From contig NZ_JAQUVZ010000034.1 of the NCBI RefSeq assembly GCF_028693135.1, positions 1-39,815 on the forward strand: 39,815 bases of DNA. The letters run 5' to 3'. Origin of the DNA: Methanosarcina sp. (GTDB lineage: Archaea; Halobacteriota; Methanosarcinia; Methanosarcinales; Methanosarcinaceae). This document shows, piece by piece, positions 3,384 to 39,300 of this stretch; position 1 is the first letter of the stretch; each line of letters begins with the position of its first letter. Both the position numbers and the translations under genes were made by a program. The notes under the pieces are model-generated. The model was given only the letters and a program-made list of their open reading frames with translations, ran no database searches and had not been told where the DNA came from.

Positions 3384-3763
3384 TGTTACACTTTTCATTT
3401 TGTTTAGTGCCGCCCGCATTGCCGCCCGAATTGCGCCTCGGGAGTACGCGGTCCTTTTCGCTGCGCTCAAGAGGACTACTTGATGGATTATAGCAGTGAG
3501 CGTAATTCAAGAGGACAAAATTAAAAATGTTTATGACCCGTACAACGTCATTCGCCTTATCGTGTCGTTTTTGTCACGCTCGACGCAGGAGAGCGGCTTT
3601 CAGACAAAAAAATAAGACAAAAGACCCTAAGAAAAGCCGTAAAGTAAAAGTAAAGTAAAAAGTAGGGAGATGCAGTCCGAACCGAATTAAAATATACCTG
3701 AAAAAGACTCTTTTCCACGTCTGTTTTTATTGATTTTTACTGGAGATTTCAACCTCTTGTTTC

Positions 3764-3882
3764 TTCTTTTATTTTCTTTCATCTTTTATTTTCTTTCATC
3801 TTTTATTTTCTTTCATCTTTTATTTTCTTTCATCTTTTATTTTCTTTCATCTTTTATTTTCTTTCTTCTTTTATTTTCTTTC
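3764..3882. repeat. 17-bp tandem repeat, 7 units
   Basis: Unit ATCTTTTATTTTCTTTC, with the first and last units starting TTC instead of ATC. Seven contiguous units fill exactly 119 bases. The array is pure pyrimidine plus A, and an open frame across it is a composition artefact. Confidence 0.9.
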
Positions 3883-3904
3883 TTCGGTCTTCTTTTTTGC
3901 CGGG

Positions 3905-3923
3905 CCGCCAGACAAGCTGGCGG
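3905..3923. terminator. Perfect 7-bp hairpin in the element tail
   Basis: CCGCCAG (3905-3911) and CTGGCGG (3917-3923) pair around ACAAG. It lies in the tail of the dispersed element and is followed by TTTTATATT. A role as terminator is only possible; the partner copy at 36.1 kb keeps just part of this stem. Confidence 0.4.
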
Positions 3924-4142
3924 AGACTTTTATATTCACCTGCGAATTTAAATTAGGTTGCCGTGGTCAAGGGAATTATTCTCTGTCAAGAGGGGCATTT
4001 TTTGATAGAAATTGTTTTCTCTTAAGGTCAACATGAATTTTCCTGTTATCCCCTGTTGTTTTTTCTTGCATGGCTGGCGAGACGGCTTCAGCCCTGCGGG
4101 GTGCAGAAAAGAAAAACAAAGATTTCATCTTAAGGATATTTT

Positions 4143-4332
4143 GAATAACATCCGTTCTGAATAACATCCCTTATGAATAACATCCGTTCTGAATAACATT
4201 CCTTCTGAATAACATCCGTTCTGAATAACATCCCTTATGAATAACATCCGTTCTGAATAACATTCCTTCTGAATAACATCCGTTCTGAATAACATCCGTT
4301 CTGAATAACATTCCTTCTGAATAACATCCCCC
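4143..4332. repeat. 16-bp tandem repeat, 12 units with higher-order pattern
   Basis: Units of 16 bases starting GAATAACAT come in three variants: A ends CCGTTCT, B ends CCCTTAT and C ends TCCTTCT. The order is A B A C A B A C A A C, then a partial last unit. The A-B-A-C block of 64 bases is thus duplicated, showing two levels of amplification. No minus-strand frame through the unit contains a stop, which makes an apparent 69-residue open frame unavoidable; I do not regard it as a gene. Confidence 0.92.
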
Positions 4333-4470
4333 AATTAATAAGGAACCACCACTGTCTACTGGTTAAAGAGTTATTTTCGGAATATTATACATCAGACAAT
4401 TATTAAATTTTTATGAAAAGTAGAAATACTTATCATGATGTGAATTTATATGCTTGATATGGAGGCAGGT

Positions 4471-17424: not shown

Positions 17425-18843
17425 ATGAAAGAAATGACATGTGGTAAAACACACAGAGGGCATGCCCTCATAACAGTTTTAGGAGTAACGACGCTGGCGC
17501 TTTTAATGCTGGCAAATATCGCAGGCGCCGCGCCATTTGCATATATTTCGAACTACGGTGACAACACAGTCTCTGTAATTGACACAGCCACAGATACTGT
17601 TACAGCCACGATACCTGTAGGACTCAATCCTAAAGGAGTGGCAGTCAGTCCAGATGAATCAAAAGTATATGTGGTGAACGAAAAAGACGGTACTGTCTCT
17701 GTAATTAACACGTCCACTAACACTGTTATGTCCATTGTGCCTGTAGGAGACGGGCCTTTAGGAGTTGCAGTCACCCCCAATGGATCAAAGGTATACGTAA
17801 CGAACTATAAAAGCAGCACTACCTCGGTGATTGACACGTCTACTAACACTGTTACAGCCACGGTGCCTGTAGGATCCTTGCCTTACGGAGTTGCAGTCAA
17901 CCCGGATGGGACAAAGGTATATGTGGCAAACGCTGCCAGTAGCACGGTTTATGTAATTGACACAGAAACAAACAATGTAACATCCATTGTGCCTGTGATG
18001 GGCGCTCCGGACGGAATTGCAGTCACCCCTGATGGAACAAAAGTATATGTGGCGAATAACGAGAGCAACATCGTCTCTGTAATTAACACGTCCACTAATA
18101 CTGTTACAGCCACTGTGCCTGTAGGAATCTGGCCCTATGGAATTGCAATCACCCCGGATGGATCAAAGGTATATGTGTCAAACTGTTACAGCAACACTAC
18201 TTCCGTAATTGACACGTCTACTAACACTGTTACAGCCACTGTGCCTGTTGGATTGTATCCCACCGGAATTGCAGTTACCCCTGATGGAACAAAAGTATAT
18301 GTGGCAGACACCAATATCTCTATAATTAACACGTCTACCAACACTGTTACAGCCACTGTGCCTGTAGGATCCTTGCCTTATGCCTTAGGGAAGTTTATAG
18401 GAGATCCAGTAACAATAACCACCATAGGAGAGCCAGTAACAGTAACCACCATAGGAGAGCCAGTAACAGTAACCACCCCCACAACAGCCACGGAGACCTA
18501 TTGTAAGGAAGTTAATGATTATCTACCAAAGTATGCCGATGGCGTTGTTCTTAATATAATAAACAAAATTGGTAGTGATATCCTCGTAGTTTGGACGAAG
18601 GCAGATTCCAAAAAACCCGTTTTCAAAGTGAATGTCCCCACCGGGCAAACCCGCACAGTTACAACTCCTGCAGGTAATTTTGATGAATATATCAGAACAG
18701 GATGTTTATGGTACCGTGTAATCCAAACTAATGATGAACACACTCAGTTGAAATCTGGTTATAAGTACACTGTTACATACTATTGGGGATCTAATGGAAC
18801 CGGGCTTACACCAATCCCTGATAGCGAAGTTCCGGAAATCTGA
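17425..18843 (+). CDS. Secreted YVTN seven-bladed beta-propeller protein
   Basis: A 472-residue exported surface protein. The signal peptide is residues 1-35 (ITVLGVTTLALLMLANIAGA). Residues 36-330 form seven YVTN blades, each reading roughly KVYVxNxxSxTVSVIDTSTNTV then ATVPVGxxPxGIAVTPDG. At DNA level the blades are nearly identical, a sign of recent duplication or gene conversion. A threonine-rich linker repeats TIGEPVTV two to three times. The last 110 residues (from TETYCKEVNDYL) form a separate domain with two cysteines. No C-terminal membrane anchor is visible, so it is either secreted or held by the S-layer. YVTN proteins are abundant in Methanosarcina envelopes; binding partners are generally unknown. 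Confidence 0.88.
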   Translation: MKEMTCGKTHRGHALITVLGVTTLALLMLANIAGAAPFAYISNYGDNTVSVIDTATDTVTATIPVGLNPKGVAVSPDESKVYVVNEKDGTVSVINTSTNTVMSIVPVGDGPLGVAVTPNGSKVYVTNYKSSTTSVIDTSTNTVTATVPVGSLPYGVAVNPDGTKVYVANAASSTVYVIDTETNNVTSIVPVMGAPDGIAVTPDGTKVYVANNESNIVSVINTSTNTVTATVPVGIWPYGIAITPDGSKVYVSNCYSNTTSVIDTSTNTVTATVPVGLYPTGIAVTPDGTKVYVADTNISIINTSTNTVTATVPVGSLPYALGKFIGDPVTITTIGEPVTVTTIGEPVTVTTPTTATETYCKEVNDYLPKYADGVVLNIINKIGSDILVVWTKADSKKPVFKVNVPTGQTRTVTTPAGNFDEYIRTGCLWYRVIQTNDEHTQLKSGYKYTVTYYWGSNGTGLTPIPDSEVPEI

Positions 18844-25630: not shown

Positions 25631-27075
25631 CATTGGTCATCGGTTAAGAACTTCTTTCCATCTACCAATAGTGTTTTTCATTTCACCTTTTCATTAAAAC
25701 CATTTTTCTCTGAACCTTTCTCTGTTTACATGCGGATCCAATGCTTGACTTTCATATACACTCATTATCGTTTCAAAAGTTCTTTGAATTCCACATCTAT
25801 TCAGAATTACTGTCAACAAATCTGATGCATTCTCTGCAAATATTGTGCTCCAACGTAACTGCGTATATTGAGCCATTTTTTCAGGATGAGCTGTTGAGTT
25901 TCTTACAAGAGAATAAATTCTTCTGCTAACGATTAGTGTCAACATTGCTGTCCATATTAGAGCCTCAATTACCTGCACATTCTTTGTTTCAAGAACGTCA
26001 AGAGCGTATTTGCTTTTCAACTCCTTAAACAGCAGTTCTATGTCCCATCTTGCTCCATATAATTTTGCAATGTCTTTTGCATTCAAAACATCTTTCTGAA
26101 TATTTGTGATATATATGTGATGCTTTTCATCTTCATCATTATATACCGCAACAAGACGTACAAGCAGCTCATCCCGCTTTTGTTTGCCTTTATACGCTCT
26201 TCTTTTGAATGCTATTTTTACAACTGCATCAATATCTTTCCCAGAGAGTTGTTTAATACACTCACTAACAGGTTTTTCCGTGAACTCTTTGCTTTTAGTC
26301 TTAGAAAGTCCCTCTTCAACAGAAACAAGAATCGGATCCATATTCTTCCTTATTCTTGAGACAAAATATCCTCCGTTTTCCTCAACTCTTGCAAACATTT
26401 GAGTTTTGTAAAATCCAAGATCAACAAGAAGAATACGGTCTTTGATCCATGGACCGATTTTCAATGTTTTGATCTCAGCTGTTTTTTCAGAGTACAGAGC
26501 AACTGTTTTAGGCCCATTAGCAACTGCACTTACCATAACTCCCACTTTTACCCCAGCAGCTACTGTTCTTGCTCTTGCTGCTGGAAACTTGTCTGCTAAA
26601 GATGAGTGAAGACGAACAATTGTACTGTCTTGAATGAGAACATCCTGAAAGTTTTCGAGTTTTTTGCTAAGTTTTCTACCAGGTTCTTTTGCAAGCTCTT
26701 CTATGCCGTGAATAACACACTGATGAAGAAACTCAACAAGTTCTGGAGTGAATCTATAGTACCAGCTGCTGTCGCTTAGGGTCTTATGTGATTCTTTTTC
26801 ATATTCTCTTTTTAAACTGGCAAGTGTACGCTGCAAGCGTACACCAAAACCAAGAGTTAAAACCCAAAAGATGATGACAGGGTCAATTTTACGCTCACGT
26901 ACTATGAGACCAGTTTCTTTGGCAGTTTGCCTTAACCACTCTTCGGGAAACATTTCCCGAAGAGAGTCTTCAAGAGTAGGTGGGGGATGAGGAGACATAG
27001 ATGCACTAATATTTAGATTATTATTATAAAAACACATACGAGAGTGATTCCCTAACGCTTAACCGATGACGCATG
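25631..27075 (-). mobile_element. Complete IS4-family (ISH8-like) insertion sequence
   Basis: The 1445-bp element has 18-base terminal inverted repeats: left CATTGGTCATCGGTTAAG (25631-25648) and right CTTAACCGATGACGCATG (27058-27075), which differ at two positions when compared as inverted copies. It is flanked by an exact 10-base direct repeat, GAATAGAATT, at 25621-25630 and 27076-27085, the target duplication expected for this group. It contains one intact transposase gene. The clean duplication points to a fairly recent insertion. Confidence 0.93.
25694..27037 (-). CDS. IS4-family DDE transposase
   Basis: Cuts and joins the ends of its own element; 447 residues, full length. The catalytic triad can be placed at Asp137 (LIQDSTIV), Asp206 (ILLVDLGFYK) and Glu334 in YGARWDIELLFKELK, which with the preceding Tyr/Arg and following Lys is the Y-(2)R-(3)E-(6)K signature of the IS4 family. 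The GGYFVSRIRKNMDP stretch after the second Asp is typical of the ISH8 subgroup. The ATG at 27037 is taken; another at 26998 would shorten it by 13 residues. No frameshift or stop interrupts the frame, so the enzyme is probably active. Confidence 0.93.
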   Translation of the reverse strand: MCFYNNNLNISASMSPHPPPTLEDSLREMFPEEWLRQTAKETGLIVRERKIDPVIIFWVLTLGFGVRLQRTLASLKREYEKESHKTLSDSSWYYRFTPELVEFLHQCVIHGIEELAKEPGRKLSKKLENFQDVLIQDSTIVRLHSSLADKFPAARARTVAAGVKVGVMVSAVANGPKTVALYSEKTAEIKTLKIGPWIKDRILLVDLGFYKTQMFARVEENGGYFVSRIRKNMDPILVSVEEGLSKTKSKEFTEKPVSECIKQLSGKDIDAVVKIAFKRRAYKGKQKRDELLVRLVAVYNDEDEKHHIYITNIQKDVLNAKDIAKLYGARWDIELLFKELKSKYALDVLETKNVQVIEALIWTAMLTLIVSRRIYSLVRNSTAHPEKMAQYTQLRWSTIFAENASDLLTVILNRCGIQRTFETIMSVYESQALDPHVNRERFREKWF

Positions 27076-31783: not shown

Positions 31784-32511
31784 TCTCCTTGTTCAAAAAA
31801 ATTTATTTTTAACCTTAAATTTGTTTTTGATACCTGATGAGGAAATATGGTGAAGAAAAGGTGAAGGATTCTTAGGATCGCAAGACCTTTTTTTCTATCT
31901 TAAAAATATATTTATCTTTATAAACGATAGTTTTAATCAATAACACAATAAAGGATTCCCTAATTCTCTATTTCTTCTAATAAATATCTTCTCATTGTTT
32001 ATCTTCAAGTTTATCTAAAAATTCAGCAAGTTTCAGTAGTTCCGAATCTCCTTATTTTGAGATGATGAATCTTAAAACAATGTTCATGACATAGCTGTTG
32101 ACTTTCATGGCAGATCCTATTGACTTTCATGGCAGATCCTATTGACTTTCATGGCAGATCCTATTGACTTTCATGGCAGATCCTATTGTGGGAGTAGAGA
32201 CACTCCAGATATAGGGTGAATTAAACCAGAGAACGGAACTTCATGGAGCTTTTTAGTGCATCTAAATCCAACAGGACAATAAAGGGCATAATTAAAAAGC
32301 CCACAAAATAAAACTGAAATACGTCTACTGATTTTGAATAACAGACCGGATTGAGTCATTATGTAATATTCCAGTATTCCAGTCAAGTTGTTCCTGGATT
32401 GCTTTACGAAATTTACTTGGAACTACTGTTCGGTGGAATTTACATATTAAAAAGATTAAAAAGATTAAATATATTAAACATTTTAGACCTTTTAGACCTT
32501 TTAAACATCCC
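31784..32511. other. Intergenic with minisatellite, no gene seen
   Basis: About 730 AT-rich bases. Besides the 22-bp array there are short direct repeats (TTTTAGACC and ATTAAAAAG-like) near 32445-32500. No frame with an SD or family likeness exists. Confidence 0.5.
32099..32186. repeat. 22-bp tandem repeat, 4 exact units
   Basis: Unit starts TGACTTTCATGGCAGATC; four contiguous exact copies fill 88 bases. Perfect identity suggests recent expansion or homogenisation. Confidence 0.93.
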
Positions 32512-35897: not shown

Positions 35898-36145
35898 ACT
35901 TCAATCCCCATACAACCTTATTCGCTATACCTAACCGTTTTTGTCACGCTCGACGCAGGAGAGCGGCCTGTCCCAAAAAAGAGAAGAAAGAAGAGAACAG
36001 ACAAATAATAATCTACCTCTGTTTTTTCCACATTTCCAAGCTTCTTCTTTCTTTTCCACATTTCCAAGCTTCTTCATTCTGTTTTTCGTCCTTCTACGCG
36101 TTTCTGCTTTTTGAGAAGAAACTCCAAACAAGCTGGTGGGAGCAT
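35898..36145. repeat. Dispersed element, copy B
   Basis: The head TTGTCACGCTCGACGCAGGA with GAGCGGC (35941-35967) is the same as at 3571-3597, with looser similarity before it. The interior is again pyrimidine-rich but with a different repeat: CCACATTTCCAAGCTTCTTC at 36028 and 36056 (28-bp period). The tail AACAAGCTGGTGGGAG (about 36125-36140) matches the tail of copy A. No gene is seen from 35769 to 36331. Confidence 0.6.
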
Positions 36146-36331: not shown

Positions 36332-39300
36332 ATGCCTGCTCCCCCTCAAATAATTGAACTTGTCACTCGCTTTGATAACTATTATGAGAGATATAAGTCC
36401 CTTTCGTACAATGAAACACAAGTAAGAAGAGAATTTATTGATCCATTTTTTAAGGCATTGGGGTGGGACGTAGATAATACACAGGCATATGATGATAGAT
36501 ATAAAGAAGTTATTCACGAAGATGCTATAAAGGTGAGCGGGAAGACAAAAGCGCCTGACTACTCTTTTAGAATAGGTGGTATCCGAAAGTTTTTTGTTGA
36601 GGCAAAAAAGCCAGCGATAAATCTCAAGGAAAACCCTGAGCCTGCCTATCAACTCCGCCGTTATGCGTGGAGCGCTAAATTACCATTAAGTATACTAACG
36701 GATTTTGAAGAGTTTATTGTATTTGATTGTACAAAGAAACCCTTACTCAATGATAAATCATCTATGGGCCGAATTGAGTATTACACCTATAGGGATTATA
36801 TCGAAAAATGGGATGAAATTGAATCAAAGTATTCCAAAAACTCAATTTAGACCGGCAGATTTGATGATCTTGCAGAAAGTTTGGTGAGTAAGAAAGGTGG
36901 AAAAGGAACAGCTGGAATTGATGATTCATTCCTGACTGAAATCGAGGGATGGCGTGATATTCTTGCTAAGAATATTGCACTTCGAAACAATGAACTTTCT
37001 GTGCAGGAGCTAAACCTTGCTGTGCAAAAAATCATAGACAGAATTATCTTTTTAAGAATCTGTGAAGATAGAGGAATAGAAGAGTACGGACAACTCAAAA
37101 AGAAAGCTGAATGTAAGGAAATTTATGAAAATCTGAAAGATCTATTCATATATGCAGACAATAAATACAACTCCGGACTCTTTCACTTCGAAAAAGAAGA
37201 TTGGATGGAAGAGCCTGATATTTTGACACTTTCCCTTAAAATAGATGACAAGATTCTCAAACAGATTTTAAGTCATCTTTATTATCCTGAGAGCCCATAT
37301 GAGTTTTCCGTATTCCCTGCTGATATTCTTGGCCATGTTTATGAGCAGTTTTTAGGCAAGGTTATCAGGCTCACAGACACTCATCAAGCAAAGATTGAAG
37401 AGAAACCCGAGGTGAAAAAAGCCGGAGGTGTATTTTATACTCCTACCTATATTGTGGATTATATCGTCAAGAATACTGTTGGAAGGCTTGTCGAAGGCAA
37501 AACTCCCAATGAAATTTCAGAGTTAAAAATTCTTGATCCGGCATGTGGTTCAGGTTCTTTTTTAATAGGAGCTTATCAGTATCTTCTGGACTGGCACATT
37601 GGCTGGTATATAGACAAGCTTGTGCCATTTATAAAGGCAGGGAAACCTGCAACTGACAAAGAAGTACAAAAATTCCTGCCTGTAAAACCTATTCCAAAGA
37701 AAAAAGGAAAGAAAAAAATCAGGTCTGCAGGACTTGACTATGATTTTCCAATTTATCAGATGAGCGAAACTGACTGGCGTTTAACATCGGACGAAAAAAA
37801 GAGAATTCTATTGAATAATATCTATGGTGTTGATATTGACCAGCAAGCAGTCGAGGTTACAAAACTTTCTCTTCTTCTCAAGGTATTGGAAGGTGAAAAA
37901 GGAGAACGCATCGCAAAGCAGCTTACAATCACTCAGGAAAGAGTACTACCATCCCTGCATGAGAATATAAAGTGCGGGAACTCTTTAATCGGTCCGGATA
38001 TCTATAATAATGTTCCTGTAAGTCTTGATAATGAAGAAGATTTATACAAAATAAATGCCTTCGATTGGAATCGGGAGTTTACAGAAGTTTTTGAGAATGG
38101 AGGATTCGATGCAGTTATTGGGAATCCTCCTTATGTCCGGCAAGAACTTCTTAAGGGTCAAAAAGAGTATCTCAAAGACAAATATGAAGTATACCACGGA
38201 AGTGCTGATCTTTATGCTTATTTTATAGAGAAGGGAATTTCCCTTCTTAAAGAGAATGGACAGTTTTCTTATATTGTTGCAAATAAGTGGATGAGAGCTA
38301 ACTATGGAAAACCACTTCGCATATGGTTAAGTAAGAAATCTATTGACGAAATTATTGATTTTGGCGATCTGCCAGTTTTTAAAACAGCAACAACATATCC
38401 CTGCATATTGAGAGTTTCAAACGGAAAAATAAAAGGGCATTTCAAGGTTGTTCAGGTTGATACTCTGGATTTCTTGGATTTATCTCAGTATGTAGAAGGA
38501 AGTGGATATTTTGTAAATCAAGAATCACTTGATGATAACGGATGGTCTCTTGTAGATCAAGAAAACAGGTTACTTCTTGATAAGCTCATGAAATCTGGTA
38601 TGCCTCTTGGAGAATATGTGGGAGGAAAAATATATCGTGGGGTTTTAACTGGCCTAAACAAGGCATTTGTTATTGGTGAAGCTACAAAAGACCGGCTGAT
38701 TGCTGAAGATCCAAAGAGCTCAGAAGTTATTAAACCATTTTTAGCAGGCCGTGACATTAAAAGATACAAGGCGCTAATATCCGACAAGTATGTGATATTT
38801 GCTCGCCGTGGAATTGATATCAGTAAATATCCAGCAATCCTTGCGCATCTTCAGAAATTCAAATCGGAGCTTACACCAAAACCCGAGGAATGGAAAGGAG
38901 AATGGAAAGGGAGAAAGCCTGGTTCATACAAGTGGTATGAAATCCAAGATTCTATCGACTATTATAAAGAGTTTGAAAGAGAGAAAATATTGTATGCAGA
39001 GATTGCGACAATGGGGCAGTTCACTCTGGATAATAATGGATTTTATTCCGATACAACTTCATATATTATGGGAAATAATTCACATTATTTATTAGGCATT
39101 TTAAACTCAAGATTATGGACTTTTATGTTTTCTAATGTTAGTTCAGTTATCAGAGGGGGATTCTTTAGATGGAAACGTCAATATATGGAAAATCTCCCTG
39201 TCCACACCACCGATTTCTCCAATCCCAAAGATGTAATTCGGCATGACAAGATAGTATCACTTGTCGAACAAATGCTTGTAATGAATAAAAAACTCGATAA

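What the first reader, a model, noticed from the sequence alone, without database searches (positions are those of the whole stretch)
3536..3925. Dispersed element with conserved head and tail around a variable pyrimidine minisatellite
Seen: 3571-3597 and 35941-35967 share a head of about 27 bases. Each is followed by T/C-rich sequence with its own tandem repeat (17-bp x7 in one, 28-bp x2 in the other), and then by an ACAAGCTGG tail. Length differs (about 390 versus 250 bases). Inference: a family of non-coding repeats whose ends are kept while the inside expands independently, perhaps a MITE or a structured RNA with a variable spacer.
Basis: seen in the sequence. Interest (0 to 1): 0.58.

Follow-up and report, generated by a model that had tools for sequence, protein, structure and literature searches.

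The report
Methanosarcina jumping repeat with conserved core
The two matching stretches are copies of a non-coding jumping DNA element, present about 70 times in this archaeal genome and probably moved by enzymes of IS1-type insertion sequences, and it carries one short internal hairpin that is kept far more strictly than the element's own ends, which is unusual and unexplained.

Summary
The head hairpin occurs 70 times in this genome; 46 of 70 have the tail hairpin 126-573 bp downstream, with independent minisatellites between. Both lie inside a larger, non-coding, intergenic element of 636-943 bp with imperfect terminal inverted repeats. Complete copies have 8-bp target duplications (6 of 12 match at 7-8 of 8 bases; 0 of 20,000 permutations as good), and relatives show empty sites. 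Insertion sequences of 1.16 kb with an IS1-type transposase, similar ends and 8-bp duplications occur in the genus, one in this genome. So this is a MITE-like element, probably mobilised by IS1-type transposases. A structured RNA is not supported.

Not ordinary: the 21-bp head is about 97% identical between copies against about 72% for the inverted repeats, and after a shared leader it is either intact or replaced by one of two other hairpins. Its role is unknown.

The parts
3408..4350 (+). Copy 1 of the element: 5' end lost or replaced by palindromic cassettes, 3' inverted repeat present
   Evidence: Flanks collinear with relative G024 (L153) where the element is absent (257 bp instead of 1157 bp); 3' repeat match 4320-4350. 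The left boundary is approximate.
3425..3442 (+). Palindromic cassette hairpin CCCGA...TCGGG
   Evidence: Read; recurs upstream of many copies
3451..3476 (+). Palindromic cassette hairpin GTCCTTTT...AAGAGGAC
   Evidence: Read; recurs upstream of many copies
3533..3576 (+). Leader unit (about 46 bp) that precedes the head
   Evidence: Leader pattern found 59 times in this genome, control 0
3577..3597 (+). Head hairpin CGCTC-gacgcagga-GAGCGGC
   Evidence: 70 copies with up to 3 mismatches, control 0
3598..3660 (+). Purine-rich tract
   Evidence: Mean purine fraction 0.74 in the 60 nt starting 27 nt after the start of the 25-base head match, over 46 copies
3760..3882 (+). Pyrimidine-rich 17-bp minisatellite, 7.2 copies
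   Evidence: TRF
3902..3927 (+). Tail hairpin GGGCCGCCAG-acaag-CTGGCGG...
   Evidence: Aligned in 46 copies
4142..4329 (+). Second minisatellite (16-bp/64-bp unit) next to the 3' end of the same element
   Evidence: TRF; unit resembles the subterminal TGAATAATATC sequence of other copies
4320..4350 (-). 3' terminal inverted repeat of copy 1
   Evidence: Pattern match with 3 mismatches; alignment score 21.5
35905..35946 (+). Leader unit of copy 2
   Evidence: Match at 35910-35948
35947..35967 (+). Head hairpin of copy 2
   Evidence: Exact match
36024..36080 (+). 28-bp x2 pyrimidine-rich repeat of copy 2
   Evidence: TRF
36118..36143 (+). Degenerate tail hairpin of copy 2
   Evidence: 8 mismatches to the tail consensus; no terminal repeat recognised

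Best explanation
It is a MITE-like element: a non-autonomous DNA transposon of the genus Methanosarcina (genus name inferred). Complete copies are 636-943 bp, have imperfect inverted repeats of roughly 30 bp (GGTCGTCCACTGTTACATGGTTGATATTTT / GGTGGTTCCTGATTAATCGGTTGATATTAT) and make 8-bp target duplications. It is most likely cut and pasted, or copied, in trans by IS1-type transposases encoded by 1.16-kb insertion sequences with similar ends. Between the ends lie passengers: palindromic cassettes, a 46-bp leader, the head hairpin, a purine tract, a pyrimidine tract and a tail hairpin. The tracts expand and shrink by slippage, giving each copy its own minisatellite. Shown: copies, ends, target duplications, empty sites, related insertion sequences. 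Inferred: mobilisation in trans, slippage, and some sequence-specific role of the head hairpin that keeps it constant.
For: 70 head copies, control 0. TIR pattern 62 matches, control 0. 8-bp duplications: 11 of 20 TIR-bounded elements (6 of 12 large ones) match at >=7 of 8, 2.1% of mismatched pairs do; 0 of 20,000 permutations. One copy (L085+15496) sits inside another TIR element with an exact 8-bp duplication. 7 of 25 collinear own/relative pairs lack the head in the relative; 5 of these 7 were read in detail, L042+6721 against G024 is clean. Flanking genes: upstream gene same strand 35, opposite 32, none 3 of 70. IS partner: relatives of the transposase in 25 of 30 genus genomes; in 8 of 30 loci examined both ends match the MITE ends at a length of 1163-1166 bp, 6 of these 8 with 7-8 of 8 duplications, including the copy in this genome, L194; intact copies L221-L223 with 8-bp duplications readable in the sequence; PF03400 DDE_Tnp_IS1 30.2 bits, above its cut-off 24.1.
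Against: Only 17 of 70 copies have a recognisable 5' repeat and 33 of 70 a 3' repeat at score >=11; the window's copy 1 lacks the 5' one and copy 2 both. 6 of the 12 large elements have weak or no duplication; L043 has a longer (about 53-bp) direct repeat at its ends instead. The MITE and IS ends agree only at 19-24 of 30 positions in the 8 full-length ISs, and no transposition was observed. NCBIfam IS1 scores 78.1, below its cut-off 100. A plain MITE does not explain why the head is the most conserved part.
Confidence: 0.86

Rival explanations
1. A multicopy structured non-coding RNA whose conserved hairpins are functional and whose middle is a free spacer.
For: Two hairpins and complementary purine/pyrimidine arms; head kept at orthologous loci.
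Against: No Rfam match. Own arms pair no better than swapped arms: mean -22.0 against -22.7 kcal/mol for permutations of 76 elements. In 147 heads 23 of 36 altered stem pairs are broken, C->T 13 and G->A 14. TIRs and target duplications are not expected.
Confidence: 0.06
2. The leader-head unit is a fixed chromosomal site (protein-binding or recombination site), and mobile cassettes, including the TIR elements, have gathered around it.
For: After a leader the next 21 bases are the head (0-4 mismatches) in 57 of 73 own and 52 of 63 other-species cases, otherwise nearly always one of two other hairpins; only 2 intermediates. At orthologous loci head identity averages 0.95, leader 0.82, everything around 0.50-0.66 (20 comparisons, one locus pair entered twice). 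Some pairs keep only leader and head while both sides differ. A few heads lie outside recognisable elements (L065, L067).
Against: The order of modules with a TIR, head and tail is shared between species, and empty sites lack leader and head as well. The orthologue comparison used only pairs in which a head was recognised.
Confidence: 0.25
3. REP/BIME-type palindromes spread by a Y1 (RAYT) transposase.
For: Small palindromic modules in varying combinations upstream of the head.
Against: 8-bp target duplications and long terminal repeats belong to DDE transposition (general knowledge). A linked Y1 transposase was not looked for.
Confidence: 0.04

Closest known systems
BrickBuilt MITE of Porphyromonas gingivalis (PMC4596501; abstract and section 5 read)
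   Same: Intergenic element with conserved 'leader' and 'tail' around a variable minisatellite and inverted-repeat ends; 19 copies in one strain; up to 991 nt.
   Different: There one 23-nt unit is shared by all copies; here every copy has its own unit, plus a hairpin more conserved than the ends and palindromic cassettes. Unrelated host; no sequence comparison made.
IS1-family insertion sequences (NCBIfam NF033558, Pfam PF03400)
   Same: 8-bp target duplication and similar inverted repeats; the partner's transposase matches both models.
   Different: The repeat itself encodes no transposase; the partner is a single-frame or two-frame 1.16-kb element and scores below the NCBIfam cut-off.
Simple 175-219-bp MITEs of the same genome (found here)
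   Same: Same type of ends and 8-bp duplications; related sequence near the 3' end (read by eye).
   Different: They lack leader, head, tracts and tail.

Membership tests
MITE (non-autonomous DNA transposon) | Terminal inverted repeats | tested here: met
   62 pattern matches, control 0; both ends recognised in 12 distinct large copies
MITE (non-autonomous DNA transposon) | Target-site duplication of fixed length | tested here: met
   8 bp; 6 of 12 large and 11 of 20 of all elements at >=7 of 8; 0 of 20,000 permutations
MITE (non-autonomous DNA transposon) | No transposase gene, short, many copies, mostly intergenic | tested here: met
   636-943 bp between the ends; 70 heads; nearest ORFs of at least 90 aa lie outside in most copies, some short overlapping ORFs
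MITE (non-autonomous DNA transposon) | Autonomous partner with matching ends | tested here: met
   IS of 1163-1166 bp with ends matching at 19-24 of 30
MITE (non-autonomous DNA transposon) | Mobilised in trans by the partner's transposase | not testable with these tools
   Needs an experiment
IS1 family (partner) | IS1-type DDE transposase | tested here: met
   PF03400 30.2 bits over cut-off 24.1; but NF033558 78.1 bits, under cut-off 100
Known RNA family | Match to an Rfam model | tested here: not met
   0 matches at gathering threshold in the window and 0 up to E=5 in 3400-4050
Structured RNA | Covariation that preserves pairing | tested here: not met
REP/RAYT system | Linked Y1 transposase | not tested
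   Not searched

The most novel reading that the evidence does not exclude
The leader plus hairpin is a functional, sequence-specific slot maintained by selection in Methanosarcina: one of three interchangeable hairpins must follow the leader, and IS1-type MITEs have captured and spread it. The head would be a protein-binding or recombination site with cellular use.
Probability: 0.27. Interest if true: 0.7.

Novelty: new variant of a known kind. Interest (0 to 1): 0.5.

Why it matters
It would describe a genus-wide, modular MITE family of methane-producing archaea with a probable transposase source, explain a part of the intergenic repeat content of these genomes, and expose an internal 21-bp motif conserved beyond the transposon's own ends, which is directly testable for a bound protein.

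Tried and rejected
Rfam searches at gathering and relaxed thresholds gave nothing. A long stem from the two arms was tested and not supported. Head-stem changes do not preserve pairing or point to one strand. A link to defence genes was suspected from copy 2 and a few relatives; reading the neighbours of foreign heads shows mixed housekeeping genes; no enrichment test was run. Autonomous partners were first sought among unpaired TIRs of this genome, without success (L112 there is a 634-bp MITE with an exact 8-bp duplication), and in three contigs of other organisms, before they were found in relatives. The head motif is absent from the viral contigs (exact pattern). Over 392 genomes of the phylum 24 have it with up to 2 mismatches: 16 of 16 of this genus, 4 of 4 of genus g20, and 4 others with one or two two-mismatch matches each. 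Literature: ten searches of the held library showed no paper on this repeat; I saw listings and abstract starts only, except PMC4596501 (abstract and section 5). Original genome papers outside that library were not seen.

Full report
WHAT IS THERE. The two stretches share 27 identical bases at 3571-3597 and 35941-35967, each followed by a T/C-rich array and a tail as described. The head is not a pair but a family: with up to 3 mismatches 70 places in this 4.22-Mb genome, 38 on one strand and 32 on the other, reversed control 0. In the fetched loci 46 of 70 heads are followed by the tail hairpin GGGCCGCCAGACAAGCTGGCGGAGGC at 126-573 bp. The interior starts purine-rich (mean 0.74) and ends pyrimidine-rich (0.76), and holds a different tandem repeat in different copies: TRF score >=60 in 16 of 46, local shuffles mean 2.2, maximum 4 in 20 rounds.

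THE REAL ELEMENT IS LARGER. Repeated sequence extends typically from about 200 bp before to about 500 bp after the head. On the 3' side it ends at ...AATAATATCAACCGATTAATCAGGAACCACC, after which copies differ; on the 5' side some copies start GGTCGTCCACTGTTACATGGTTGATATTTTTGAA. The reverse complement of the 3' end resembles the 5' end. A pattern built from the shared letters matches 62 places, control 0, several of them facing pairs 175-219 bp apart, i.e. simpler MITEs with the same ends. In window coordinates the 3' repeat of copy 1 is 4320-4350, so the minisatellite at 4142-4329 belongs to the same element; the left limit of copy 1, about 3408, comes from comparison with a relative. Copy 2 has no recognisable ends.

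IT INSERTS. Among 20 elements with two ends (12 large, 7 small, 1 of 634 bp) the 8 bases on either side match at 6.4 on average against 3.9 for mismatched pairs; 11 of 20 reach 7 or 8, mismatched pairs 2.1%; no permutation of 20,000 reached the observed mean, nor for the 12 large ones alone. One copy sits in another such element with an exact duplication. Against 800 kb of two relatives, 25 collinear locus pairs were found: 18 have the head on both sides, 7 do not; copy 1 of the window is among the 7, and L042+6721 is present here and in G026 but absent in G024. The copies sit without preference for the strand of the upstream gene (35 same, 32 opposite, 3 none).

WHO MOVES IT. Scanning the genus for the ends led to a 1165-bp element with such ends, a 7-of-8 duplication and two overlapping frames. 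Its parts match IS1 transposase models, and relatives are found in 25 of 30 genomes of the genus, with 3 matches in this genome. Of 30 loci, 8 give both ends at 1163-1166 bp, 6 of these with 7-8 of 8 duplications, including one in this genome (L194), whose reading frame holds a stop. Three copies in G018 have open frames of 384-388 codons; the 363-aa protein scores 30.2 bits for DDE_Tnp_IS1 (cut-off 24.1) and 78.1 for NCBIfam IS1 (cut-off 100). The ends agree with the MITE ends at 19-24 of 30 positions in those 8, so mobilisation in trans is likely but inferred.

WHAT REMAINS STRANGE. Mean pairwise identity among own copies is 0.967 for the 21-bp head, 0.872 for the tail hairpin, 0.721 and 0.709 for the 3' and 5' inverted repeats, 0.692 for the leader and 0.667 for the purine tract. 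Copies were chosen by the head, which favours it; but the rescan of the fetched loci allowing 4 mismatches gave the same 70. Searching by leader alone removes that bias in part: genome-wide, 45 of 59 leaders are followed by a listed head; in fetched sequence the next bases are a head with 0-4 mismatches in 57 of 73 own and 52 of 63 other cases, and otherwise nearly always one of two different hairpins, GCAGAG-TTGCG-GCTCTGC or CCCGA...TCGGG, with 2 intermediates (most of that sequence had been fetched because it holds a head). So the leader is followed by an interchangeable hairpin. At orthologous loci of different species the head averages 0.95, the leader 0.82 and the surroundings 0.50-0.66 identity (20 comparisons, one pair twice), and some pairs keep only leader and head. 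The motif occurs in all 16 genomes of this genus and all 4 of one related genus sampled, and in 4 of the remaining 372 of 392 genomes only as one or two two-mismatch matches.

NOT AN RNA, ON THIS EVIDENCE. No Rfam match. Arms of the same copy pair no better than swapped arms. In 147 heads 36 stem-pair cells are altered and 23 of these are broken. The conservation is of sequence rather than of pairing.

NAMES. The closest published anatomy found is BrickBuilt (PMC4596501, abstract and section 5).

Noticed in passing
L068 2537-3030 (G000:C33:42642-43135): Four leader units spaced about 151 bp apart, the first three followed by the other two hairpin types and the last by the head: a tandem cassette array.
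   Followed up: partly
window 36332-36850: ORF downstream of copy 2 that looks like the start of a restriction-modification protein (by eye, no search run).
   Followed up: no
window 25694-27037: Transposase ORF matching DDE_Tnp_1, unrelated to the element's ends as far as seen.
   Followed up: no
window 17565-18369: Coding repeat array with a 126-bp period inside a 472-aa ORF.
   Followed up: no
window 32098-32188: Perfect 22-bp tandem repeat, 4.1 copies.
   Followed up: no
L067 3069 and 5238 (minus strand): Two isolated heads followed by a shared TTTTCCGTGAAGTCTGCAAAAAAGC, without leader, tail or recognisable ends.
   Followed up: partly
L043 flanks (G000:C73) and L044 (G000:C87): Two contigs carry the same element and flanks; the element is bordered by a direct repeat of about 53 bp instead of 8 bp.
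   Followed up: no
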